39,733 nt of DNA from a virus, in IMG/VR virus record IMGVR_UViG_3300025413_000060, positions 1 to 39,733 of that record. One strand, 5' to 3'. The position numbers and the translations under genes are program-made. Below the pieces are notes generated by a model that did not search any database, was not told the origin of the DNA, and saw only the letters and a list, made by a program, of their open reading frames with translations. Within the stretch, counting starts at the first letter, position 1, and each line of letters begins with the position of its first letter. Of the stretch, positions 10,881 to 36,195 are shown in pieces.

Positions 10881-11129
10881 ATGGAACAAGAAAAAAAAGA
10901 ACTTCTCTCCTTACAAGAATTATTAGAAATAAACAAAAATGCAAAGGAACGAAGAAAATTAAAAAACTGGAACTCTACTGTAGACAGTATTACACGTAAT
11001 TTAGAACTCAATAGTAATTTGGCATGGAGTGAAAGTGAATTAGAAGATGATCAGGTGCAAGAATTAATAGAGAAAGGGTTTAAAGTAGATTTTTCATCTC
11101 CTAATAATTGTCATAAAATTACCTGGTAA
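10881..11129 (+). CDS. helical hypothetical protein, 82 aa
   Basis: From ATG 10881 with an A-rich leader. Residues 1-30 are a highly charged helix (EQEKKELLSLQELLEINKNA). The C-terminal part is acidic then polar (EDDQVQELIEKGFKVDFSSP). No family recognised. It is the last gene before the structured RNA region. Confidence 0.6.
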   Translation: MEQEKKELLSLQELLEINKNAKERRKLKNWNSTVDSITRNLELNSNLAWSESELEDDQVQELIEKGFKVDFSSPNNCHKITW

Positions 11130-11183
11130 TAGTATAAGAAATAAACAATTATCTTATAAGAGTAAATTAAATATCAAAAACTA

Positions 11184-11214
11184 TTTGAATTTTCCAAGAA
11201 GGGTAGTATTTTTG
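11184..11214 (+). promoter_or_regulatory. consensus Bacteroidota promoter
   Basis: TTTG (11184-11187), 19 bases, TATTTTTG (11207-11214): both boxes and the spacing match the Bacteroidota -33/-7 consensus. Transcription would start near 11221, five bases ahead of the first long stem of the RNA region. Confidence 0.75.
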
Positions 11215-11220
11215 TAGTAC

Positions 11221-11562
11221 TATATGGAGACCGTGGAAAGTTCCAGTAGTAAAAAGTAACTTTAAGATAAAAACGAGGATATTAAATTATCCGGATTCCC
11301 CACTGTCAACCTCTTCCACGGTCTCCTGACAGATGGGGTTTTCTCATTTAAAATAGTTCGAGTCTGTGGGACGTAAGCTGATCCAAAGTGAGGGTGTAGT
11401 ATTGCACCAGAATATCCTTTAAATGTCAGACCGGTTTTTTCATGACTTATAAACCACTGACAGCCAAAACGGGTGACGGGAGAGTGGCTCCGGAGCAAAT
11501 CAGGTAGGATGTTTAAGTTACTTCCTGACACAGGGGCAGGGGTGACTTAAGTTTTCCTACCA
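11221..11562 (+). ncRNA. candidate ~340-nt structured RNA
   Basis: The 470-base gap 11130-11599 has no gene but dense pairing. GGAGACCGTGGAA (11226-11238) pairs perfectly with 11314-11326. CCCCACTGTCA (11298-11308) pairs with 11327-11338 (one bulged A) and is followed by TTTT. These two stems interleave, so they are alternatives or a pseudoknot. Further stems: GGATA/TATCC at 11278-11292, TGTCAG..GGTTT/AAACC..CTGACA around 11423-11463, and GGTAGGA..TTAAGT/ACTTAA..TCCTACC at 11503-11561. It has its own promoter. No class recognised. Confidence 0.6.
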
Positions 11563-11599
11563 TCCAAGTTCTAAAAAAGTTCTCCAAAGCAAAATCAAA

Positions 11600-12091
11600 A
11601 TGCAATTTCACAAGAAAGGACAAGCAAAGAATGATAACTTAAAATTAGACCGTAATAAGAAAGTACCTTATGGTAAACATCAAGGTAAGACTGTAGATTG
11701 GTTACTTTCTAATGATAAAAGTTATTGTAATTGGTTAGATAAGGAAGGATTATGGGAGAAATGGGATTTGTACGAGGGTAAAAAACCTAAACCTAAACCT
11801 CAGCACTCAAAACCTTTTGTTCCTAACTCAAAAGAAGTTTATACAGATCCTCCTCCTTGGGAAGATGGCCATACTACAACATCAAAACCTGTAGCAGATA
11901 AACTTAATAAATTTGTAACAGAGAACGATGATGTATTAATAGGCTTAATGGAAGTACCTGTACCACCTGTAGAGAATAAGTGGATAGAAGAAGCAAAAAA
12001 ATTATTTGAATCCATTTATAGAGAGAAAGAATTAACCAAGGAGCTGAAAGAAAGAATAGAGGACATATTGTACATGCCTATAGAAAATTAA
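11600..12091 (+). CDS. DUF3820-like protein, 163 aa
   Basis: Residues ~19-52 (KKVPYGKHQGKTVDWLLSND, then SYCNWLDKEG) follow the DUF3820 pattern MPFGK.KGK...W......YL.WL found in exonuclease C-termini and phage proteins. A Pro/Lys linker (KKPKPKPQHSKPF) follows, then a helical acidic C-terminus. The DUF3820 role is thought to involve DNA metabolism but is not settled. Next gene starts five bases on. Confidence 0.6.
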   Translation: MQFHKKGQAKNDNLKLDRNKKVPYGKHQGKTVDWLLSNDKSYCNWLDKEGLWEKWDLYEGKKPKPKPQHSKPFVPNSKEVYTDPPPWEDGHTTTSKPVADKLNKFVTENDDVLIGLMEVPVPPVENKWIEEAKKLFESIYREKELTKELKERIEDILYMPIEN

Positions 12092-12096
12092 AACTT

Positions 12097-12291
12097 ATGA
12101 ATAACTACAGAACATTTATTCGTACTTGGTGGAAGAAAGATGCTAAGGGTAAGTTAGTTCCTGCTCTTGGTAGAAAGACACCTGTAAGAAACAATCTTAG
12201 CATAGAAGAAGCCCGGAAAATGTGTACAGAATACAACAATCAAAATGATCCGAGACCGTTTGGTCGTAAAATGGAATTTGAATCTTATTAA
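12097..12291 (+). CDS. hypothetical protein, 64 aa
   Basis: From ATG 12097. Basic, Trp/Arg-rich (TFIRTWWKKDAKGKLVPALG) with a helix IEEARKMCTEYNNQN; the style matches small DNA-adapting phage proteins with the phrase RTWW..., but no family is assigned. Function unknown. Confidence 0.6.
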   Translation: MNNYRTFIRTWWKKDAKGKLVPALGRKTPVRNNLSIEEARKMCTEYNNQNDPRPFGRKMEFESY

Positions 12292-12303
12292 AACAAATTA
12301 AAA

Positions 12304-12828
12304 ATGGAGAATCCAAAGTATAAAATAGGAGATAAAGTAGTACCAATAACAAAGACTGCAGGAGTAATAAAATTTTCAGATTGTGCTATATGGGAAACAG
12401 CTTGTGATACTAGTCAAAATTATCTGTATGTAGTAGCAATAAATTCAAGTTATTACACTTGCAATAACTCAAATAAAACAACATCGGGTAATCTTTATAA
12501 TGAAGCTGATCTTATGTATTACGTAGAACCAGTAGCAACACCTGTAGCAGATATTACTCCTCAAGGTAAAACAGTAGCAGAAGAGGCACAATCACTTGTA
12601 TATGGTGACCGTGAGAAAGACTACGGTAAGACATCAGATAACTTTGCTGATATTGCTAAAGGTTGGGAAGTAATCTTTAAAACAAAGATCACATCGGAAC
12701 AAGTTGGTTTAGCAATGAGCTGGTTAAAGATATGCCGAGCCAATCAGGATAATTGTGAAAAAAGAGACTCGATAGTTGATTGCATTGGTTATATGCTCTG
12801 TATAGAAAAAATCAAAAAAGGTTTATAA
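12304..12828 (+). CDS. DUF6378-like protein with N-terminal beta domain, 174 aa
   Basis: Residues 1-80 look like a small KOW/SH3-type beta domain (KYKIGDKVVPITKTAG). Residues ~93-172 match the phage DUF6378 pattern: AEEAQSLVYGDREKDYGKTS, DNFADIAKGWEVIF, ITSEQVGLAMSWLKICRANQ, RDSIVDCIGYMLCIEK (family E....GDR...YG...NF...A.LW, D..LVD.AGY). The family is common beside nucleotide-pool and replication genes of phages; its activity is not established. The two-part layout is notable. Confidence 0.65.
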   Translation: MENPKYKIGDKVVPITKTAGVIKFSDCAIWETACDTSQNYLYVVAINSSYYTCNNSNKTTSGNLYNEADLMYYVEPVATPVADITPQGKTVAEEAQSLVYGDREKDYGKTSDNFADIAKGWEVIFKTKITSEQVGLAMSWLKICRANQDNCEKRDSIVDCIGYMLCIEKIKKGL

Positions 12829-12858
12829 ATTTTTACTCACAATCAAAAATTCAAAAAC

Positions 12859-13203
12859 ATGAGACTAAAAAGAAACAAAGTAGGAGGAATCCTCGTTATG
12901 GCAGGTATTGAAATTATGGGCACAGCTTATAGTCCTGTACCAAAACCTCGAGCCAGCCGGGAATTTATTAGTCAGGTTTATGCAAGACCAACCGGCCAAC
13001 AAAGATGGTTTGCATCTGAAGCTCGTAAGAAAGAAATTCTTATAAATCTTCAGAATGCAAAAAGAGATGTTAGGGCAAAAGCTGCAACATTTTATATTGA
13101 CAGAAATACTAAAGTGACAGGTATTACTGCTAAGGAAAAACTTATTGTTCATAGTATGAAGCTGATGTCACAAATAGCTGACTGCAAAAATTGTAAAGCA
13201 TGA
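12859..13203 (+). CDS. basic hypothetical protein, 114 aa
   Basis: From ATG 12859 with A-rich leader. An alternative in-frame ATG at 12898 has AGGAGG 13 bases upstream, so a 101-residue form is possible. Strongly basic, helical C-terminal two-thirds (NLQNAKRDVRAKAATFYIDR) ending CKNCKA. It overlaps the next start as ATGA. Function unknown. Confidence 0.6.
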   Translation: MRLKRNKVGGILVMAGIEIMGTAYSPVPKPRASREFISQVYARPTGQQRWFASEARKKEILINLQNAKRDVRAKAATFYIDRNTKVTGITAKEKLIVHSMKLMSQIADCKNCKA

Positions 13204-13418
13204 AGACGAATTTTATTATCAACGGGAAGATACAACTGGTGTTAGTTCCTTCTAATGACCGGGAAAAAGAACTGTTAAAGGAGCTGTGTCAACAACCTGT
13301 AGACATGCAAATGTTTACTAAGCTACAGGTAGGTTTAGATAGCTTTGCAGATGCAATAATTGTAACAACTTCTGCCCCTAAACAAGAAAAGAAATCTGAG
13401 ATAATTATAGAAGTTTAA
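13200..13418 (+). CDS. hypothetical protein, 72 aa
   Basis: From ATG 13200 (ATGA overlap). Beta-alpha pattern: MKTNFIINGKIQLVLVPSND then a helix KELLKELCQQPVDM and a basic tail (KQEKKSEIIIEV). I recognise no family, though the INGKIQLVL..... opening is seen in other small phage proteins. Function unknown. Confidence 0.6.
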   Translation: MKTNFIINGKIQLVLVPSNDREKELLKELCQQPVDMQMFTKLQVGLDSFADAIIVTTSAPKQEKKSEIIIEV

Positions 13419-13443
13419 GATGTAACTTTTAAATAAATAGTTT

Positions 13444-13548
13444 ATGAATACTAACGACCTGAAATTTGAGAGAGTTTATGTATTCTAGTACATTAAAAAA
13501 TGATGGTGGCTGAACAAAAAGCAATAGATAAATTAAGAAGTTTATGAT
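13444..13548 (+). other. two micro-ORFs ahead of the polymerase gene
   Basis: ATG 13444 gives MNTNDLKFERVYVF (stop 13486-13488); ATG 13501 gives MMVAEQKAIDKLRSL and its TGA (13546-13548) overlaps the polymerase ATG as ATGA. The box TAACTTTT, seen ahead of several real genes here, lies 13 bases before the first. They may be small genes or leader peptides; the evidence is placement only. Confidence 0.3.
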
Positions 13549-15088
13549 AACACAACCTAAGATATGGTTCATAGGACCAGTAGCAGAGTATTCAGATGCT
13601 GTACAATATAGTACAATAGAAGAGTGTTATAACTATCTGAAAGACAAGATGGAAATTGGTGAGGATATTGAGACAACTTATAAATTTCCTAAAAATACTT
13701 ATAAAAATGAACAGGTATATTCTCCAGGACTTGATCCATATCTTAGTAAAGTTGTGATGTTACAATTAGGTACTAAAGAACAAGTATTTGTAATTGATAC
13801 CAGATCAGTAGATATCTCAATTTTATTACCATTATGGGGAAATAAGGAAAGATTATGGATTGGTCATAACCTTAAATTTGAGGTAAAGCATTTGTTACAT
13901 AACTATGGCATAATACATCATAAGATTTATGACACAATGCTTGTTGAACAAAATTTAACTAATGGTCTTAGTCTTGGTTATTCTTTAGAAAAACTAGCCG
14001 GTAGGTATTTAGGTATTAAACCAGTAGAAAAGCAAAAAGATCTTTTTGTAGAAGAGGATGAAGATGCAGAATATATAGACAAATCAATTCGTATGGGCTT
14101 TCTTACTATTGGTTCAAAACCATTTACAGAAGAACAGATTTTATATGGTGCTGATGATATTACATATCCTATAGAGATTAAAAAAAAACAAGCTTTAGGG
14201 TATAATGGTTATAAACCTGTACAGGTAAATAATATTGAAAATGAATTTTGTCTTGTATTAGCTGATATAGAACTAAAAGGTATGACATTTGACCAAGAAC
14301 AATGGTTAAAAACATATGAAGAAAATTTAGTAATATACCAGAAAAGAAAAGAAAAACTTGACAAATGGGTAGTAGATAACTTTAAAGAAGACATAAAATT
14401 CTGCTCTGTTCCGGATCTTTTTAATACCAATATACAGTGTACTATAGAGTGGTCTAGTAGTAACCAGGTAATTGTTTTAATGAAAAAACTTGGTTATTGT
14501 CCACAAGAAAAAAGTAAAAGTACTGGTTATGTTGAATATACAGTAGGTGCTAAAGCTCTATTAAAACTATTACCAAGTAAGTACAAAGAAATGTACATGG
14601 ATGATAAAGAAACAGATATTGTAGATCCTAAAAATGATCTTATACTTAACTATCTTTTATTTAAAACATCTGAACAATCTTGTACAACATTTGGTAAAGA
14701 TTTTCTAAAGTATGTTCATCCAATAACTGGTAGATTACATAGTTCTTATCGGCAAATACTTAATACTGGTAGAATGTGTGTAGATGTAGACACTCTCATA
14801 GATACTAATATAGGTTATATACGAATAGGAAATTTGATACCAACTATTGAAGGTGTACTAGAATACCCAGAAGGTATAAAAGCTAAAACACATACTGGGA
14901 AGTATCACCCTATAACACATGGGATAAATAAAGGTGTGGAGGAAATGTACAGAGTAACACTGGAGTCAGGACATGAGATAATTTGCACCATGAATCATAA
15001 ATTCTTAACAGAAAAAGGTTGGTATAGTCTGAAAGAAATAGTATCTTCGCCTACAGAATATACCATACTGTATGATGAAAGTTACTGA
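13544..15088 (+). CDS. DNA polymerase I (family A), N-extein plus N-terminal split intein
   Basis: A 514-residue protein. Residues 1-411 are the 3'-5' exonuclease domain (exo I Asp41-Ile-Glu43; exo II GHNLKFEVKHLL; exo III YGADDITYP) and the start of the polymerase domain, ending LNTGRM. Residues 412-514 are an N-terminal intein: Cys412 (VDVDTLIDTNIGYIRIGNLI, block A) and GHEIICTMNHKFLTEKGW (block B, TxxH). The frame stops at 15088, and the partner half starts at 16037. Splicing in trans would join TGRM to SSKNPNLQNIP, restoring the family sequence TGR.SS.NPNLQNIP. No 5'-3' exonuclease domain. The stop overlaps the next ORF by 17 bases. Confidence 0.93.
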   Translation: MITQPKIWFIGPVAEYSDAVQYSTIEECYNYLKDKMEIGEDIETTYKFPKNTYKNEQVYSPGLDPYLSKVVMLQLGTKEQVFVIDTRSVDISILLPLWGNKERLWIGHNLKFEVKHLLHNYGIIHHKIYDTMLVEQNLTNGLSLGYSLEKLAGRYLGIKPVEKQKDLFVEEDEDAEYIDKSIRMGFLTIGSKPFTEEQILYGADDITYPIEIKKKQALGYNGYKPVQVNNIENEFCLVLADIELKGMTFDQEQWLKTYEENLVIYQKRKEKLDKWVVDNFKEDIKFCSVPDLFNTNIQCTIEWSSSNQVIVLMKKLGYCPQEKSKSTGYVEYTVGAKALLKLLPSKYKEMYMDDKETDIVDPKNDLILNYLLFKTSEQSCTTFGKDFLKYVHPITGRLHSSYRQILNTGRMCVDVDTLIDTNIGYIRIGNLIPTIEGVLEYPEGIKAKTHTGKYHPITHGINKGVEEMYRVTLESGHEIICTMNHKFLTEKGWYSLKEIVSSPTEYTILYDESY

Positions 15089-16058
15089 GTATCCGGAAAT
15101 AGAATACTATAAAGGAAAAACCATAAAAGAAGATGGTAAAGAGTGTCGAAGGACATACCTGACTAAGGAGTTTATAGACAAGACCTATATACAACTAGGT
15201 ATGTCCTTCGATCAAATTAAAGAGTACTATAGAATATCATACAAGATATTCTACTACTCCTATAAAAAATGGTATACGGTACAAGACAGAAAGAAAATAG
15301 GAGGAGGTAAGATAGCAATAAGTCAAAGAAATAGAAACTCTAATAGGTTCAATGCAGGAAAACCAAAACAGGTAATACCGAAAGATATTCTATTAAATTA
15401 TATAGAAAAGAAATACTCTATAGAGAAAATGGCATGTCTGCAAAAAGTAGCTCCCCAAACAGTAAAAAAGAACCTAGAGTACTATGAAATAACCAAAGAT
15501 ATTGTAAAGTATGGAGTAGACTATGAAAGAGTAATAACAGCTAAGGCAATAGATGAAATACTAGGTACTAATATAATGAAGGGTATAGAAAAAGCAAATA
15601 CTGACATACTATCTCCAGAAGTAGAGCAAATGTTAGAAGATATAAATATAGCTCAACTAAGACTAAATCAATTAATATTAACACTAAAGAAAACCAGACT
15701 CTGTATAATGGGAAGGTTCTCTAGAAGAGGACTAGCACCAAGTAAAACATATAAGCTACCTACTAGTCAAACAAATAAACTGGCGTATGACATCCTAGAA
15801 GAACTGGAGTATGAAGCAGAGTGTGAATATCAAATAGAAAATAAATTCTACGACTTCCGTATAATAGATACAAATATTCTAATAGAAATAGATGCAGAAG
15901 GATATCATAGAACAGAGGCACAGATAAGTAACGATGTATATAAAACAGAGTTGGCTAGAAAAAAAGGATACAAAATACTAAGGGTAGTGACAAGTAAAAA
16001 TGATAAACGAGTAACACTAAAAAGAAAAATAGAGACATGTATAAAGCAGCTAAAATAG
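15072..16058 (+). CDS. Vsr-like (EDxHD-type) homing endonuclease between split-intein halves
   Basis: A 328-residue basic protein. The N-terminal two-thirds hold helix-turn-helix-like repeats (QLGMSFDQIKEYYRISYKIF; EKKYSIEKMACLQKVAPQTV). The C-terminal ~85 residues resemble Vsr/DUF559 nucleases: ECEYQIENKFYDFRIID, then LIEIDAEGYHRTEAQISNDV, KTELARKKGYKILRVV, with the acidic and His residues of the EDxHD metal site. It overlaps the upstream half by 17 bases and the downstream half by 22 and lies in another frame, so it is a free-standing protein. This arrangement matches the 'fractured genes' described with this endonuclease family (I-Bth0305I type). Confidence 0.85.
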   Translation: MMKVTEYPEIEYYKGKTIKEDGKECRRTYLTKEFIDKTYIQLGMSFDQIKEYYRISYKIFYYSYKKWYTVQDRKKIGGGKIAISQRNRNSNRFNAGKPKQVIPKDILLNYIEKKYSIEKMACLQKVAPQTVKKNLEYYEITKDIVKYGVDYERVITAKAIDEILGTNIMKGIEKANTDILSPEVEQMLEDINIAQLRLNQLILTLKKTRLCIMGRFSRRGLAPSKTYKLPTSQTNKLAYDILEELEYEAECEYQIENKFYDFRIIDTNILIEIDAEGYHRTEAQISNDVYKTELARKKGYKILRVVTSKNDKRVTLKRKIETCIKQLK

Positions 16059-17095
16059 CCAAAATAGAGAAAATGGGCAAAAGGGTAGTGGCTGATATAA
16101 CTGTAGAAAATGATCATTCCTATATAGGCAATGGAATAGTGTGCCATAACAGTAGTAAAAATCCAAATCTTCAAAATATCCCTGCTGATGTAAATTACAG
16201 AAAGGCATTTGTTGCACCTGAAGGTTATTCTTTACTTAATGCCGATTATAGTTCACAAGAATCAAGAGTACTTGCAGAGGTATCTGGTGATGCTGCTATG
16301 ATCAGTTTTTTTAATGATGGACACCCAATACATGGAGAAGACTACCATAGTTTTACTGCTACCAAGATGTTCTCTTTAATGAGAAATGAACCGGATCTTA
16401 TAGTATCTAAAAAAACACATCCGGAAGAAAGGAATGCTGCTAAAAGTATCTCATTTAAAATTGCATACGGTGGTTCTGCTTATACTTTGAAAGATGATTT
16501 TGGTGTAGAAGAAGAAGTAGCACAAGAGTTTATTGATAGCTATATGAAAGCTTTTCCTGCATTAGATAATTATTTTAAATCCGGAAGAGAAAAAGCTGTA
16601 AAAAAAGGCTATGTAGACATTATACCAGATAGGAGATATTGGGAACCAGATTTTAAAAAAATGAAAGAACTTGTTGAAAAAGCCTGGTCATTTTATCCTA
16701 GTAATTATAAAGATCTTTCACAGGAAGCAAAACAAGAAGTAAAAGAAAAAATCAATAAAGAACATCCAGAGATAAAAAAATATTGGAGTGAATATTTTTC
16801 CCTTAAAGGTAGCTTAGAAAGATGTAGTCAAAATTATCCTATACAAGGTTTAAGTGGATCACAAACAAAAATGGCCGGTGTATTATTTAGACGATACCAA
16901 TTAGAAAATAATCTAAGAGATACTGTATATCTTACATCACTTGTCCATGATGAGTGTCTTGCAGAAACTAAAGAAGAATTTGCAGAACAAGGACTAAAAT
17001 TACTAGAGGAAAAGATGATTGAAGGTGCTAATTTATTTTGCAAAAATGTAAAAATGGGGGCATCTGGAAATGTCTGTATTTACTGGTCACACTAG
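16037..17095 (+). CDS. DNA polymerase I (family A), C-terminal split intein plus C-extein
   Basis: Residues 1-38 are a C-terminal intein: VVADITVENDHSYIGNGI (block F) and VCHN ending at Asn38 (block G), followed by Ser39 as +1 nucleophile. Residues 39-352 are the polymerase palm and fingers: motif A LLNADYSSQESRVLAEVSGD, motif B RNAAKSISFKIAYG (Arg, Lys, Phe, Tyr-Gly of the O helix), motif C LVHDEC. Residues after motif B contain an insertion rich in Lys/Glu. The ligated enzyme would be 725 residues (411+314). The gene is useless without its partner at 13544. Confidence 0.93.
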   Translation: MYKAAKIAKIEKMGKRVVADITVENDHSYIGNGIVCHNSSKNPNLQNIPADVNYRKAFVAPEGYSLLNADYSSQESRVLAEVSGDAAMISFFNDGHPIHGEDYHSFTATKMFSLMRNEPDLIVSKKTHPEERNAAKSISFKIAYGGSAYTLKDDFGVEEEVAQEFIDSYMKAFPALDNYFKSGREKAVKKGYVDIIPDRRYWEPDFKKMKELVEKAWSFYPSNYKDLSQEAKQEVKEKINKEHPEIKKYWSEYFSLKGSLERCSQNYPIQGLSGSQTKMAGVLFRRYQLENNLRDTVYLTSLVHDECLAETKEEFAEQGLKLLEEKMIEGANLFCKNVKMGASGNVCIYWSH

Positions 17096-17159
17096 TAAAA
17101 AATAGTACAAAATGTCTTTATTTTAAGAAACATTTTTCGTAAATTTATAAACTCGTTTT

Positions 17160-17633
17160 ATGGTAAATTTACCGCAGTTTAACAACATTAAAGCTTTCTT
17201 AAAGAACAATCCTGATGGTGGTTACGAGGACTGGCACAAACAATACAGACCAGTTCGACAGAAGAAGGCAGAAGACGATTATCCCGAAGCGTTTCAAGAA
17301 TGGTGGTGCACATTTCCGGCAAGTATGAACTTCATGTTCAAAGGTCGAAAGTTTATCGGCACTAGAGGTCTGAGAGACAAGAAAGAAGAAACCTTCAAAG
17401 CATATAACGAGGCAAAAAAAGCAGCAGGATTTACTGATGAAGAAATGCTGTATTGCCTCAAGGTAGAAATAGAGTTGAGGAAGGTAGCAAGTTACAACCA
17501 TAAAGATCCTAAGTACAATGACTTTCAATACATGAAAGCAACTGTTGCTTATCTTAATGGTGGTAAGTTTAAGTATTACAAAGATGAGGAGTTAAAGGAG
17601 CTTTCAGATGATATAGAATCAAACAGTGCATAA
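17160..17633 (+). CDS. hypothetical protein upstream of DnaB, possible helicase loader
   Basis: A 157-residue basic protein containing PEAFQEWWCTFPASMNFMFK and GRKFIGTRGLRDKKEETFKA, then helices DEEMLYCLKVEIELRKVASY and YMKATVAYLNGGKF. The layout (FxxWW..FP... then A...YL..G.FK) resembles phage replication-initiation or helicase-loader proteins that sit before dnaB. Its stop overlaps the dnaB start (TAATG), consistent with coupled production. The loader role is inference from context. Confidence 0.6.
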   Translation: MVNLPQFNNIKAFLKNNPDGGYEDWHKQYRPVRQKKAEDDYPEAFQEWWCTFPASMNFMFKGRKFIGTRGLRDKKEETFKAYNEAKKAAGFTDEEMLYCLKVEIELRKVASYNHKDPKYNDFQYMKATVAYLNGGKFKYYKDEELKELSDDIESNSA

Positions 17634-18079
17634 TGAGTTTATCGGAACAATTACATAAGGAGATTGAGAATGGCAGAAATGGCAAAGCTGGTATCATACC
17701 TGTAGAGTATAATAGAGTTGGTGATTATATTGAGATTGCCAAGAATACTACTTATGTTGTTGGTGGTGAGACTTCTTGTTTTACTGGTGAGCAACTTATC
17801 CATACAGAAAAAGGTGTTTTACCAATATCGGAAATAAAAATTGGTGATAAAGTACTTTCTTATAACGTAAATAAAAAAATAAATGAATATAAGATAGTTA
17901 CAAATACTGTTACAAATCCGACACATGTTGATAAATTACTTTGTATAAAAATGAAAGATGGTACAGTTATTAAAGTAACTGAAAATCATGAATTTTTTAC
18001 TGGGGAAAAGTTTGTGAAAATCAAAGATTTATTACTATCTTTGCAACATGAAACAATGGAAAAGAGTACCGGGTTATAG
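17633..18079 (+). CDS. DnaB-like replicative helicase, N-extein plus N-terminal split intein
   Basis: A 148-residue protein. Residues 1-48 are the start of a RecA-like helicase core ending TTYVVGGETS, the first half of the Walker A loop. Residues 49-148 are an N-terminal intein: Cys49 in CFTGEQLIHTEKGVLPISEI (block A), then GTVIKVTENHEFFTGEKF (block B, TENH). The partner is at 18575. Splicing in trans would give GGETS-SGKSTLAQD, i.e. the Walker A GETSSGKS. The N-terminal DnaB domain is absent. The end overlaps the HNH ORF by 32 bases. Confidence 0.92.
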   Translation: MSLSEQLHKEIENGRNGKAGIIPVEYNRVGDYIEIAKNTTYVVGGETSCFTGEQLIHTEKGVLPISEIKIGDKVLSYNVNKKINEYKIVTNTVTNPTHVDKLLCIKMKDGTVIKVTENHEFFTGEKFVKIKDLLLSLQHETMEKSTGL

Positions 18080-18593
18080 TAAATATGAGGCAAGTATTGA
18101 CGGTGAAATAAAAACTTTCAATTGGAAAAATAAAGGAATTGAAAAAATAATGAAACCTGCATTAGACAATTGTGGTTATTTAAGAACTGTTCTTTATAAT
18201 GATGATGGAATTGCAAAAACGGTAAAAGTTCATAGAATAATAGCAATGACTTTTATTGATAACCCGGAAAACAAATCTCAAGTTAATCATATCAATCACA
18301 TAAGATCAGATAACAGAGTACATAATTTAGAATGGTGTACAAATAGTGAAAATCAGAAATGGTCATACACTTGTAGAAGAAGAAATATAACAGGTGAAAG
18401 AAATCCTCACACTAATTTAAAAGATGAAGATGTGATACAGATGAGAAAGTTGTGGAAACATGGTAGAAAAAACAAGTATGATGAGAACGGTCAGTTGTGT
18501 ATGACAAGAAAAGAACTTGCTGACACGTTTGGAACTACAGTTGATGTTGTTAAAAATATAATACAAAAAAGAACATGGAAGCATCTGTTATAA
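18048..18593 (+). CDS. NUMOD4-HNH homing endonuclease between split-intein halves
   Basis: A 181-residue protein. Residues ~3-25 (QWKRVPGYSKYEASIDGEIK) form a NUMOD4 motif. HNH follows: VHRIIAMTFIDNPENKSQVN, HINHIRSDNRVHNLEWCTNS. The C-terminal part (KDEDVIQMRKLWKHG; TRKELADTFGTTVDVVKNII) is a helix-turn-helix DNA-binding end. It overlaps the upstream helicase half by 32 bases and the downstream half by 19, in a different frame. It is unrelated to the endonuclease in the polymerase gene, although its placement is the same. Confidence 0.9.
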   Translation: MKQWKRVPGYSKYEASIDGEIKTFNWKNKGIEKIMKPALDNCGYLRTVLYNDDGIAKTVKVHRIIAMTFIDNPENKSQVNHINHIRSDNRVHNLEWCTNSENQKWSYTCRRRNITGERNPHTNLKDEDVIQMRKLWKHGRKNKYDENGQLCMTRKELADTFGTTVDVVKNIIQKRTWKHLL

Positions 18594-19681
18594 ATCTTAA
18601 AGATATTGTTTCATTTGAAGAAATTCCTTATGAAACAACATATGATATATCAGTAGAAGATAATAACAACTTCTATTTGGCAACACAAAAAGATCCAATA
18701 TTAGTACACAACTCAGGTAAATCTACATTGGCCCAGGATATGTTTATGATCCGTCCTATTGAGTGGTATCTGAAGAATAAGAATGATGACATCAAGTTGT
18801 CTATCATCCTATTCGGCATGGAGCGTAAAATGTACCAATATAGTGCAAGGTGGTTAGCAAGAAAGATATTTACAGAACAGGGTATTCCTATTCCTCCAAA
18901 GAAAGTATTAAGTAGACACAAGAATTTTAAAATGACCGACCAGGAATACATGCTGGTAAAGGAACACTACAAAATACTTGATGAGTGGGAAAAAGATAAT
19001 CTTCTTGTTGCATTTGAAGGTAGTAAGAATCCTTCTGGTATATCAATGTACCTTGAGCAGTTTGCAAGAAAGCATGGAACTATTATAGACAAGGATAAGA
19101 ATGACAAATCAATGGAAAACATATTGGCAGGTAGACAGTATGTACCAAATCATCCTAATCATATTGTCCTTGTAATAGTTGACCATATTGGTATACTTTC
19201 ACCTGAGAAAGATTTAGATAAATCTAAAGGTCAAATAGATAAGTTCAGCAAAGTAATGAGAGAAGCTCGTGATGTTTATGGTTTCTCTCCAGTTATTGTA
19301 CAACAGTTAAACAGAAGTTTATCAGATGTTACAAGATTAAAACTTGGTGATCTTGCTCCAAAACTAAGTGACTTTGCTGATTCATCTCAGACACAACATG
19401 ATGCAGATGTAGTACTTGCTTTATTTGAGCCGTACAGACATATAGTAGGTGACCTTGATGGGCATAAAGAGAATGGTTATGCACTAAAAGGTTTTAGAGA
19501 TGAACATTTCAAAACTTACTACAGATCATTACACATTTTAAAAAACTCCTTTGGTACAAGTGGTGTACAGTTTCCTATGGCATTACATCCAGAGTATGGA
19601 ATATTTGCAACACTCCCTCGCATAAAAGAAACTAAGGATACTATATATGAACAAGTAACATCAGGAGCTTATTTTCTCTAA
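18575..19681 (+). CDS. DnaB-like replicative helicase, C-terminal split intein plus C-extein
   Basis: Residues 1-46 are a C-terminal intein: TTYDISVEDNNNFYLATQ (block F) and ILVHN ending at Asn46, with Ser47 as +1. Residues 47-368 complete the helicase: SGKSTLAQD (rest of Walker A), LSIILFGMERK, VLVIVDHIGIL (Walker B), PVIVQQLNR (motif with Gln and Asn), and DADVVLALFEPYRH. It ends in a tail ITEKD-less KETKDTIYEQVTSGAYFL. The ligated protein would be 370 residues, a DnaB C-terminal ATPase core only. Confidence 0.92.
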   Translation: MEASVINLKDIVSFEEIPYETTYDISVEDNNNFYLATQKDPILVHNSGKSTLAQDMFMIRPIEWYLKNKNDDIKLSIILFGMERKMYQYSARWLARKIFTEQGIPIPPKKVLSRHKNFKMTDQEYMLVKEHYKILDEWEKDNLLVAFEGSKNPSGISMYLEQFARKHGTIIDKDKNDKSMENILAGRQYVPNHPNHIVLVIVDHIGILSPEKDLDKSKGQIDKFSKVMREARDVYGFSPVIVQQLNRSLSDVTRLKLGDLAPKLSDFADSSQTQHDADVVLALFEPYRHIVGDLDGHKENGYALKGFRDEHFKTYYRSLHILKNSFGTSGVQFPMALHPEYGIFATLPRIKETKDTIYEQVTSGAYFL

Positions 19682-19700
19682 CAATAAAAAACAAAACAAA

Positions 19701-20069
19701 ATGGAAATAAAAATAGAAGATTATTTATCTTCAGATGATATTAAACAGATAGCTATAGATGAGGTTAAAAAACATGTTAAAAATTCTATAGGAGAAGTAT
19801 CAGTATCATCAGATAGGGGTTTAGTACTAATAAAAACACTGGCTAAAACACTAGCTAAAGATGGTATACAAGAACTTATTCCTGATTTTAAAGACTTATT
19901 AAGTCAACATATAGAATCTACTATAAAAGAAATAAAATTATCAGAGTTTTTTGCTCATTCTTATGGTTGGCAAAGTACAGGCAATAAAGTATTAAATGAA
20001 GTACTTTCTAATAATAAGTCATTATTAGATGCTAAGGTAAAAGAAATTTTTAAACCATATGATAAATAA
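19701..20069 (+). CDS. hypothetical protein, 122 aa
   Basis: From ATG 19701 with leader AAAACAAAACAAA. Helical and Lys-rich; residues ~40-70 hold two near-repeats LIKTLAKTLAKDGIQEL. Contains HSYGWQSTGNKVLNEVLSNN. No membrane segment or known motif. It follows dnaB in the same direction and may be part of the replication operon. Function unknown. Confidence 0.6.
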   Translation: MEIKIEDYLSSDDIKQIAIDEVKKHVKNSIGEVSVSSDRGLVLIKTLAKTLAKDGIQELIPDFKDLLSQHIESTIKEIKLSEFFAHSYGWQSTGNKVLNEVLSNNKSLLDAKVKEIFKPYDK

Positions 20070-25519: not shown

Positions 25520-26831
25520 TTGATTTGCAAGTGACCTTATACAGTAATGTATATTGAATAACCCTGTTAATTGCTGGAAACCTAAGTCGAGAGATATGGC
25601 AATCAGCATCCAAGCCTTGTACAATAACAAGGAAGGTTCAGAGACTATCGAAACTACAACTGAAATATGTTGGAAAGGAGTAGAGTACGCTTCAAGTGAA
25701 GTGGAAATGCAGGGGGTCCAGAAATGGATCGTGATATAGTCCGATCTTAATAGAAATATTAAGCTATTATGTGTTTTTATTTGTATTAATGGTATAGTTT
25801 TCATATCTTTGTTGTATGAAAAGTTTTATCAAAACAAATTGTGTAAGTTTAAAGAAAGAGGATAAATATAGTAGCGGTATCTATAAAATTTATCATGAAC
25901 TATTTCCTACAAAAATATATGTAGGAAGCACTGTTAGAAACTCAAATTCATCAGGTTTTATCCGTAGATGGGGACGGCATTTTACAGATTTATCTAAGGA
26001 CAAACACGGTAATCAAAAATTACAAAGGATTGTAAATAAATACGGTATATCAGGTTTGAAATTTGAGATAATAGAAATAGTTCAAGATAATAATAATGTC
26101 ATTCAAAGAGAGCAGTATTGGATAGATCTTCTTCAACCTTATTATAACATTTGCAAAAAAGCAGGATCAACTCTTGGAGTAAAAACAAGTGTTGAAAATG
26201 TAATCAAAATGAGCAGAGCAATTGAACAATTCAGTTTATCTGGAAAGTTCATAGCTTCTTTTATTAATGTACAAGATGCATTTAGAAAAACTGGAGTTAA
26301 TGCAAGTTTAATTAGACAAGCATGTGACAGACAATTTAAAGAAAAAAGTTCTCAAGCTGGAAATTTTCAATGGAAGTTTAAAGATTCATTATTTCCAATT
26401 TCTGTATATCAAAAAGGAACTTCTTTTAAATTAACATGTTACACTAAAAATGGAAAGTTTTACAAAAATTTTTCATCTATATTAGAAGCTGCAGTAGAAC
26501 TTGATATACCGGTAGGAAATATATCAAAACATCTAAAAGATAATAGATCAGGTATTTGTTATGGGTATGTTTTTAAAAGATATCTTGAGTCTAACATACC
26601 AAAAAAGATTACTGTAAAACGTCACCACAAAATGCAATGTAAAGTGTTAATATGTGATATTTCTACAGGTGCTTTTTTTGAGTATACTTCTTTTAACAAA
26701 GTAGATCAATCTATTATTAGTAAATGCACTCTTTCAAAAATGATAAAAGATAATAAGTTTGAAAAATTACACAAGAATAAATACAAAATACACATAGTGC
26801 CTTATGAATAACGAACATAAGGGAACTAATG
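25520..26831 (+). ncRNA. group I intron
   Basis: A 1312-base intron. GGTTCAGAGACTAT (25635-25648) and GATATAGTCC (25733-25742) are the R and S elements that form P7 (GACTAT/ATAGTC). P1: TCATTTG (25516-25522) pairs with CAAGTGA (25528-25534) around a 5-base loop, placing a U-G pair at exon base 25519. The intron ends in G26831. With these sites the host reading frame is restored exactly (VF-I-CENGMVKG). The endonuclease ORF lies in the loop after P7. Confidence 0.88.
25816..26811 (+). CDS. intron-encoded GIY-YIG homing endonuclease
   Basis: A 331-residue protein. GIY-YIG nuclease domain at residues ~20-115: SGIYKIYHELFPTKIYVGST (GIY and YVG), Arg in SGFIRRWGRH, Glu in QREQYWIDLLQPYYNICKKA (Glu and Asn). 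The C-terminal two-thirds hold NUMOD/IENR-type DNA-binding repeats, e.g. FSLSGKFIASFINVQDAFRK and KNGKFYKNFSSILEAAVELD. It lies inside the group I intron and would spread it into intron-less copies of the host gene. Confidence 0.92.
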   Translation: MKSFIKTNCVSLKKEDKYSSGIYKIYHELFPTKIYVGSTVRNSNSSGFIRRWGRHFTDLSKDKHGNQKLQRIVNKYGISGLKFEIIEIVQDNNNVIQREQYWIDLLQPYYNICKKAGSTLGVKTSVENVIKMSRAIEQFSLSGKFIASFINVQDAFRKTGVNASLIRQACDRQFKEKSSQAGNFQWKFKDSLFPISVYQKGTSFKLTCYTKNGKFYKNFSSILEAAVELDIPVGNISKHLKDNRSGICYGYVFKRYLESNIPKKITVKRHHKMQCKVLICDISTGAFFEYTSFNKVDQSIISKCTLSKMIKDNKFEKLHKNKYKIHIVPYE

Positions 26832-35515: not shown

Positions 35516-35655
35516 ATGTTAATTAACTTGTAGAAAATGGTTAAGTTATTTACCTTTACAGAGTAATAAAACTACTGCCATAGTTATACAAGATATTAAA
35601 TACTCCTTTGGGGTGACGGATGGCAGTCCTGATCCTCAGAGGAGTTTTTCATTTT

Positions 35656-36195
35656 ATGCAAGAAGAAATATGGAAACCTATAGCAGGTTATGAAGGTTAT
35701 TATGAAGTGAGTAATCTTGGAAGAGTAAAATCTTTATTTTTTACACAAAATTCTAGATGGGGGAAAGATACAATTAAAGTAAAAAAAGAGAAAATTAGAA
35801 AAAATGTATTAAATCCTGTAAACGGTTATTATTGTTTAACTATAACAAAAGATAAAAAATTTAAAGGTTATGCTATTCATAGATTAGTTGCAATAGCATT
35901 TATTCCTAATCCTGAAAACAAAAAAGAGGTTAATCACATAGATGGTAATAAATTAAATAATTCTGTCACTAATTTAGAATGGGTAACTGCTAAAGAAAAT
36001 ACACACCATTCTATAAATACAGGACTTAATCATGGCTTAACTGTTATTAGATTAAAAGCCATAGAAGCAAGAATAATGAAAAATAAAGGATATAAATCAA
36101 TTCAAATACAACGTGAATTAAATATATCAAAATCTGCACTTTGTAGAATATTAAATAATAAAACACATATTGATTATGGCAAAAACAACAAGTAA
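35656..36195 (+). CDS. NUMOD4-HNH homing endonuclease overlapping recA
   Basis: ATG 35656 (MQEEIWKPIAGYEGYYEVSN) gives 179 residues. NUMOD4 (EIWKPIAGYEGYYEVSNLGR), HNH (HRLVAIAFIPNPENKKEVNH, IDGNKLNNSVTNLEWVT) and a helix-turn-helix end (YKSIQIQRELNISKSALCRI). Its stop overlaps the recA start by 20 bases. In the fractured genes nearby the endonuclease overlaps the downstream part by 19 and 22 bases, so the style is shared. The recA N-terminus looks complete, so this endonuclease is probably free-standing. The 140 bases before it hold a stem ACTCCT/AGGAGT. Confidence 0.85.
   Translation: MQEEIWKPIAGYEGYYEVSNLGRVKSLFFTQNSRWGKDTIKVKKEKIRKNVLNPVNGYYCLTITKDKKFKGYAIHRLVAIAFIPNPENKKEVNHIDGNKLNNSVTNLEWVTAKENTHHSINTGLNHGLTVIRLKAIEARIMKNKGYKSIQIQRELNISKSALCRILNNKTHIDYGKNNK

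What the first reader, a model, noticed from the sequence alone, without database searches (positions are those of the whole stretch)
13544..17095. Split-intein DNA polymerase with its endonuclease in between
The family A polymerase is encoded as two proteins, each ending or starting in half an intein (Cys412 block A/B in the first; block F/G ending HN-Ser in the second). The insertion point is the highly conserved TGRM/SSKNPNLQNIP junction, so trans-splicing must work for the phage to have a polymerase. This is the 'fractured gene' arrangement reported for inteins with Vsr-like endonucleases, here in a phage PolA.
Basis: partly seen in the sequence, partly recalled or inferred. Interest (0 to 1): 0.85.

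Follow-up and report, generated by a model that had tools for sequence, protein, structure and literature searches.

The report
Split-intein DNA polymerase in a phage
A freshwater phage encodes its DNA polymerase as two proteins that should be stitched together by a self-splicing "split intein", with a homing-endonuclease gene between them, and the next gene (the replicative helicase) is broken in the same way; relatives without these inserts show that they are mobile, and the arrangement itself is of a known kind.

Summary
ORFs 13544-15088 and 16037-17095 encode a family A polymerase broken at TGRM/SSKNPNLQNIP. IntN (103 aa, from Cys412) and IntC (38 aa, ending HN before Ser) carry intein motifs; an endonuclease ORF (15072-16058) overlaps both. 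Five viral contigs with 97% identical PolA lack the insert, their exteins meeting exactly at the predicted junction (411+314=725 aa). Two other contigs carry the identical arrangement; a fourth (78% identical exteins) carries IntC plus endonuclease, and its sisters are empty. All 22 classifiable inteins at this site in other phage contigs are contiguous; only this lineage is split. It recurs in seven more contigs, and cassette dS of 0-0.1 against extein dS of 1.1 shows recent horizontal movement. The kind is known ("fractured genes", Dassa 2009, not readable here; STP4-a UvsW; MIJ3 PolB). The Vsr-like label for the PolA endonuclease has weak support. Trans-splicing is inferred from sequence. 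It is a new member of a known kind, made more interesting by the tandem arrangement and the population evidence for mobility.

The parts
13544..14776 (+). PolA N-extein, 411 aa (3'-5' exonuclease and first part of the polymerase domain, ends ...NTGRM)
   Evidence: Pfam DNA_pol_A_exo1 E 5.8e-16; phrog_17 DNA polymerase; collinear with intact 725-aa PolA in L004-L007 and L012
14777..15085 (+). PolA IntN, 103 aa, starts Cys412; block B T-x-N-H (TMNH); stop codon 15086-15088
   Evidence: TIGR01445 intein_Nterm E 1e-8 above cut-off; same fold family as gp41-1 and Spl DnaX inteins, E 1e-10 to 1e-11
15072..16058 (+). Endonuclease ORF between the halves, 328 aa; C-terminal nuclease-like domain with E-x-D-x4-Y-H-x7-N-D-x2-K; overlaps IntN by 17 nt and IntC by 22 nt
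   Evidence: MTES_1575 E 4.4e-6 (below cut-off), DUF559 E 0.01; phrog_503 E 1.6e-7; motif conserved in L008; dN/dS about 0.2 against L008
16037..16150 (+). PolA IntC, 38 aa, ends ...GNGIVCHN
   Evidence: TIGR01443 intein_Cterm E 6.4e-7 above cut-off; 79% identical in L008
16151..17095 (+). PolA C-extein, 314 aa, starts Ser+1 (SSKNPNLQNIP), polymerase motifs DYSSQESR, RNAAKSISFKIAYG, VHDE
   Evidence: Pfam DNA_pol_A E 2.5e-48; alignment of relatives
17633..17776 (+). Helicase N-extein, 48 aa, ends ...GGETS (first part of Walker A)
   Evidence: joined with the C-extein in intein-free alleles L034-L036 and L005
17777..18076 (+). Helicase IntN, 100 aa
   Evidence: TIGR01445 E 2.6e-7 above cut-off
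18036..18050 (+). TATCTTTG-N4-ATG: candidate Bacteroidota promoter -7 element four bases before the HNH start, inside the IntN coding sequence
   Evidence: consensus and TSS spacing from PMC6847099
18048..18593 (+). NUMOD4-HNH homing endonuclease, 181 aa, between the helicase halves
   Evidence: HNH_3 E 2.5e-9 and NUMOD4 E 5.5e-7, both above cut-off; phrog_59 HNH E 8e-41
18575..18712 (+). Helicase IntC, 46 aa, ends ...ILVHN
   Evidence: TIGR01443 E 2.2e-5 above cut-off; 98% identical in L031, L032, L037, L038, L053 and L060
18713..19681 (+). Helicase C-extein, 322 aa, starts SGKST (rest of Walker A)
   Evidence: DnaB_C E 4e-9

Best explanation
A mobile split-intein cassette sits in the phage's polA. 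The N-half (411 aa + 103-aa IntN) and C-half (38-aa IntC + 314 aa) are translated separately. IntN and IntC associate, splice themselves out in the class 1 way (Cys1, block B TxxH, terminal His-Asn, Ser+1), and ligate a 725-aa family A polymerase. The ORF between them encodes a homing endonuclease, which most likely cuts intein-free polA alleles so that repair copies the whole cassette (IntN-endonuclease-IntC). A second, independent cassette of the same design, with a NUMOD4-HNH nuclease, interrupts the P-loop of the adjacent DnaB-like helicase. Shown: anatomy, intein motifs, empty alleles, presence/absence polymorphism, horizontal movement of the helicase cassette. Inferred: trans-splicing, endonuclease activity, homing.
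For: Curated intein N and C models over cut-off on both pairs of halves. Exteins exactly contiguous in five 97%-identical PolA alleles. Helicase alleles 99.7% identical but intein-free. Flank changes at the joints: helicase +1 is Ser in the window and Ala in its 99.7% sister; L008 has 9-10 differences in the first 32 nt of the C-extein against 47-52 in the other 910 (Fisher p 1e-4 and 7e-6 against two empty sisters), as expected from co-conversion. Cassette dS 0.06 (HNH), 0.12 (IntN) and 0 (IntC) between L031 and L032, while their helicase C-exteins have dS 1.1. Purifying selection on endonucleases and IntC. The related same-site inteins L077, L099 and L105 are contiguous. STP4-a UvsW shows the same three overlapping ORFs. 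No intron RNA found.
Against: No protein data. The PolA endonuclease is only weakly assignable, and its single-sequence structure model was useless (pLDDT 38). Evidence for movement of the PolA cassette (one diverged second allele) is thinner than for the helicase cassette. Flank divergence at the joints could also arise from selection on cut-site or splice-site residues.
Confidence: 0.9

Rival explanations
1. The two polymerase halves work as associating subunits without splicing, like genes split by a homing endonuclease with no working intein.
For: Phage enzymes encoded by two genes after insertion of a free-standing endonuclease are reported, e.g. Aeh1 nrdA split by mobE (PMC3653736).
Against: All intein catalytic motifs are intact and score above curated cut-offs. 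IntC stays 79% identical to that of the 78%-identical polymerase L008. In the helicase the break falls inside the Walker A loop, where unspliced halves cannot form an ATP site.
Confidence: 0.05
2. It is really one contiguous intein with an internal endonuclease, broken by sequencing error or rejoined by programmed frameshifting.
For: Both intein halves share a frame, the endonuclease is +1 of them at both loci, and the ORFs overlap.
Against: Identical in three contigs from different assemblies, and the IntC/endonuclease overlap is kept in diverged L008; the helicase case has the same structure in five further contigs that cover the whole element. In STP4-a UvsW the frame relation is different. 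No canonical slippery site was seen by eye.
Confidence: 0.03
3. The insert is a group I intron or another RNA element removed before translation.
For: Such introns interrupt phage polymerase genes, including those of crAss-like phages (PMC7886860).
Against: No Rfam match in 11000-20000 up to E 1; the interrupting ends are coding and are intein halves.
Confidence: 0.01

Closest known systems
Fractured genes with split inteins and free-standing endonucleases (Dassa et al. 2009, doi 10.1093/nar/gkp095; text not held, known from memory and from citing papers)
   Same: Conserved DNA-replication enzyme broken by a split intein with a free-standing endonuclease gene between the halves, in phages
   Different: I could not check whether polA is among the loci they listed; here two adjacent genes are fractured, with nucleases of different families, and near-identical empty alleles are available
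Salmonella phage STP4-a UvsW (KJ000058, locus L028)
   Same: N-half+IntN, endonuclease, IntC+C-half as three overlapping ORFs; its intein aligns with both window inteins (E 6e-14 and 3e-15)
   Different: Different host enzyme; its endonuclease has no usable similarity to the PolA one and matches TnsA-like N and NUMOD3 weakly
Pseudomonas phage MIJ3 DNA polymerase split intein (PMC6892783)
   Same: A phage DNA polymerase gene split by an intein with an HNH endonuclease ORF between the halves
   Different: Family B polymerase
Contiguous inteins at the same PolA site in other phage contigs (L077, L099, L105 and others)
   Same: Same insertion point TGR[LMF]/SSxxPNLQNIP; homologous intein (32-38% identity, E 3e-23 to 5e-27)
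   Different: One continuous reading frame, so cis-splicing; some with internal nuclease, some minimal
gp41-1 split intein
   Same: IntN about 90-100 aa, IntC about 37 aa, Cys1, Ser+1 (table in PMC11766414); sequence match E 1e-10
   Different: Different host protein; sequence only distantly alike

Membership tests
Fractured genes (split intein + free-standing endonuclease) | Conserved enzyme gene broken in two by a split intein | tested here: met
   exact joint shown by empty alleles
Fractured genes (split intein + free-standing endonuclease) | Separate endonuclease ORF between the halves | tested here: met
   ORF 15072-16058 with its own start and stop, not fused to either half; nuclease assignment weak for PolA, firm for the helicase HNH
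Fractured genes (split intein + free-standing endonuclease) | Trans-splicing of the halves | not testable with these tools
   Needs protein expression
Class 1 inteins (Hint fold) | Cys1, block B TxxH, C-terminal His-Asn, Ser/Thr/Cys+1 | tested here: met
   Cys412; TMNH; CHN then Ser
Vsr-like / EDxHD homing endonucleases | Sequence or fold membership of the Vsr-like nuclease family | tested here: inconclusive
   MTES_1575 E 4e-6 below its cut-off; no PDB relative; no Vsr match; structure model pLDDT 38
Homing (mobile) element | Presence/absence at one exact site with movement between divergent hosts | tested here: met
   Helicase cassette. PolA cassette: presence/absence at the exact site met, movement suggestive only
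Homing (mobile) element | Endonuclease cuts the empty allele | not testable with these tools
   Needs purified enzyme
Family A DNA polymerase | Exonuclease and polymerase domains in one product after splicing | tested here: met
   DNA_pol_A_exo1 on the N-half, DNA_pol_A on the C-half; intact 725-aa alleles

The most novel reading that the evidence does not exclude
Two unrelated mobile split-intein cassettes have independently fractured adjacent genes of one phage replisome (polymerase and helicase), so replication waits on two separate protein trans-splicing reactions. The helicase cassette's nuclease also carries its own leaderless host-type promoter inside the intein coding sequence.
Probability: 0.5. 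Interest if true: 0.6.

Novelty: new member of a known kind. Interest (0 to 1): 0.5.

Why it matters
The case comes with what most fractured genes lack: nearly identical natural alleles with and without the insert, at two neighbouring sites. That makes homing of split-intein cassettes and the step from contiguous to split intein directly testable. It also supplies two split inteins from one genome (about 22% alike over the 83 residues that align), which must work side by side and may be useful orthogonal protein-ligation tools.

Tried and rejected
AlphaFold of the PolA endonuclease without an alignment: pLDDT 38, not interpreted. Wider searches for the endonuclease found only L008 and the identical contigs. 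Charge segregation of split inteins: the PolA pair is acidic IntN/basic IntC (-6/+2), unlike contiguous same-site inteins (IntN 0 to +15, IntC -1 to -8), but the helicase pair (+1/-7) is not, so it is not used as proof. In one search the third sequence was mistyped by me and is ignored; repeat it with the true sequences. The promoter motif was first taken for a homing-endonuclease hallmark; a wider scan showed it before many gene types in viral contigs, so it is a general host-type signal. Elevated differences upstream of the PolA joint in the window were only weakly significant (p 0.001 against L012, 0.04 against L005). Dassa 2009 and Carvajal-Vallejos 2012 are not held.

Full report
What is there. 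Three overlapping ORFs run 13544-15088, 15072-16058 and 16037-17095. The first has a DNA_pol_A exonuclease domain and ends in an intein N-terminal half that starts at Cys412. The third begins with an intein C-terminal half and continues as DNA_pol_A. Both intein models score above curated cut-offs. Joined, the intein matches solved inteins, including gp41-1 (E 1e-10).

The joint is proved by natural alleles. In contigs L004-L007 and L012 the polymerase is 97% identical, and N-extein residue 411 is followed directly by C-extein residue 1, giving 725 aa. Two contigs from other metagenomes are identical to the window, insert included (L002, L003). L008, with a 78% identical C-extein, carries IntC (79%) and the endonuclease (62% over 202 aa), while its 94%-identical sisters L009 and L010 are empty. 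This excludes a sequencing artefact.

A second case lies next door. ORFs 17633-18079, 18048-18593 and 18575-19681 are a DnaB-like helicase N-piece with IntN, a NUMOD4-HNH nuclease, and IntC with the rest of the helicase. The break is inside the Walker A loop (GGETS / SGKST), so neither half alone can form an ATP site. Twenty-four fetched contigs have the helicase without the insert; three of these are 99.7% identical to the window over the C-extein. Seven other contigs carry the same split intein (L031, L032, L033, L037, L038, L053, L060; L033 is cut off and shows only IntC), besides the two identical ones.

Mobility. L031 and L032 have helicase C-exteins at dS 1.1, but HNH, IntN and IntC at dS 0.06, 0.12 and 0. 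The cassette has therefore moved recently between diverged hosts. The empty sister L034 has Ala where splicing needs Ser+1, and the window has Ser. In L008 the first 32 nt after the insert carry 9-10 differences from its empty sisters against 47-52 in the other 910 nt. Both fit co-conversion during homing, though selection on those few bases is not excluded. The two cassettes are independent: L008 has the PolA one beside a different, empty helicase.

Origin of the split. A pattern for His-Asn followed by the PolA motif found 32 viral contigs and no match among 84,980 species' genomes. Three are this lineage and are split. Of the other 29, 22 show both joints in one open frame, that is, contiguous inteins; 7 are cut off by the contig end. 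The window intein groups with contiguous L077, L099 and L105 (84/92 support, not firm). The split form was thus probably derived by insertion of an endonuclease gene into a contiguous intein at the usual loop; this is inference.

Is it the only polymerase? No second PolA lies in the record, and the family B polymerase of sister phages has no match in it. The record is a 39.7-kb linear fragment, so this is support, not proof. At the same locus, relatives with 94% identical flanking DNA carry a family B polymerase instead. That resembles the A/B switching reported for crAss-like phages (PMC7886860).

Nuclease. Between the window and L008 the PolA endonuclease is under purifying selection (dN/dS about 0.2) and keeps an E-x-D...YH...ND-x2-K motif. 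Its family is uncertain: MTES_1575 and DUF559 are weak hits, phrog_503 has no known function, and no solved relative was found. 'Vsr-like' is plausible but not established. The helicase HNH is firm.

Expression. Most genes in the window lack a Shine-Dalgarno sequence, as in Bacteroidota (PMC6847099). TATCTTTG, fitting the Bacteroidota -7 element, stands exactly 4 nt before the ATG of the helicase HNH gene. Reported start sites lie 4-5 nt after that element, so a leaderless mRNA is predicted. In 604 kb of loci from this family, some of it overlapping, this spacing occurs before 8 distinct ORFs, 7 of them homing endonucleases; the other spacings from 0 to 12 total 3. In viral contigs at large the signal precedes many gene types. 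The PolA endonuclease lacks it and is probably translated by coupling.

Verdict. The arrangement is real and of a known kind. I could not read Dassa 2009 to see whether polA was among its loci. What adds interest is the tandem of two cassettes and the population-level evidence for their movement.

Noticed in passing
window 18036, 25804, 38823; L031:312, L034:2822, L052:2585, L107:1183-1503: TAHHTTTG exactly 4 nt before ATG (predicted leaderless Bacteroidota-type promoter); in this phage family 7 of 8 such ORFs are homing endonucleases, other spacings almost empty. In viral contigs at large it precedes many gene types.
   Followed up: partly
L034:1577-4584 against window 13465-17169: Near-sibling phages carry a family B polymerase in place of PolA at the same locus with 94% identical upstream DNA; in L034 and L036 it is itself interrupted by a GIY-YIG ORF at its DVx..YPN motif, with no Rfam intron found.
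   Followed up: partly
window 25816-26811 and 35620-36195: Two more homing endonucleases: a GIY-YIG/NUMOD1 gene, and a NUMOD4-HNH gene overlapping the start of recA; four endonuclease genes in about 40 kb.
   Followed up: no
L071:697-3849: The sibling 108-kb record has a contiguous LAGLIDADG intein in a large-terminase-like gene; its N-terminal part is most like Leptolyngbya phage Lbo-JY46 (42%) and, distantly, Cellulophaga phages.
   Followed up: no
L025:2768-6046: Gut phage DP SC_6_H4_2017 PolA has a contiguous intein containing an HNH-like domain about five residues upstream of the window's site, and an HNH gene directly after the polymerase gene.
   Followed up: no
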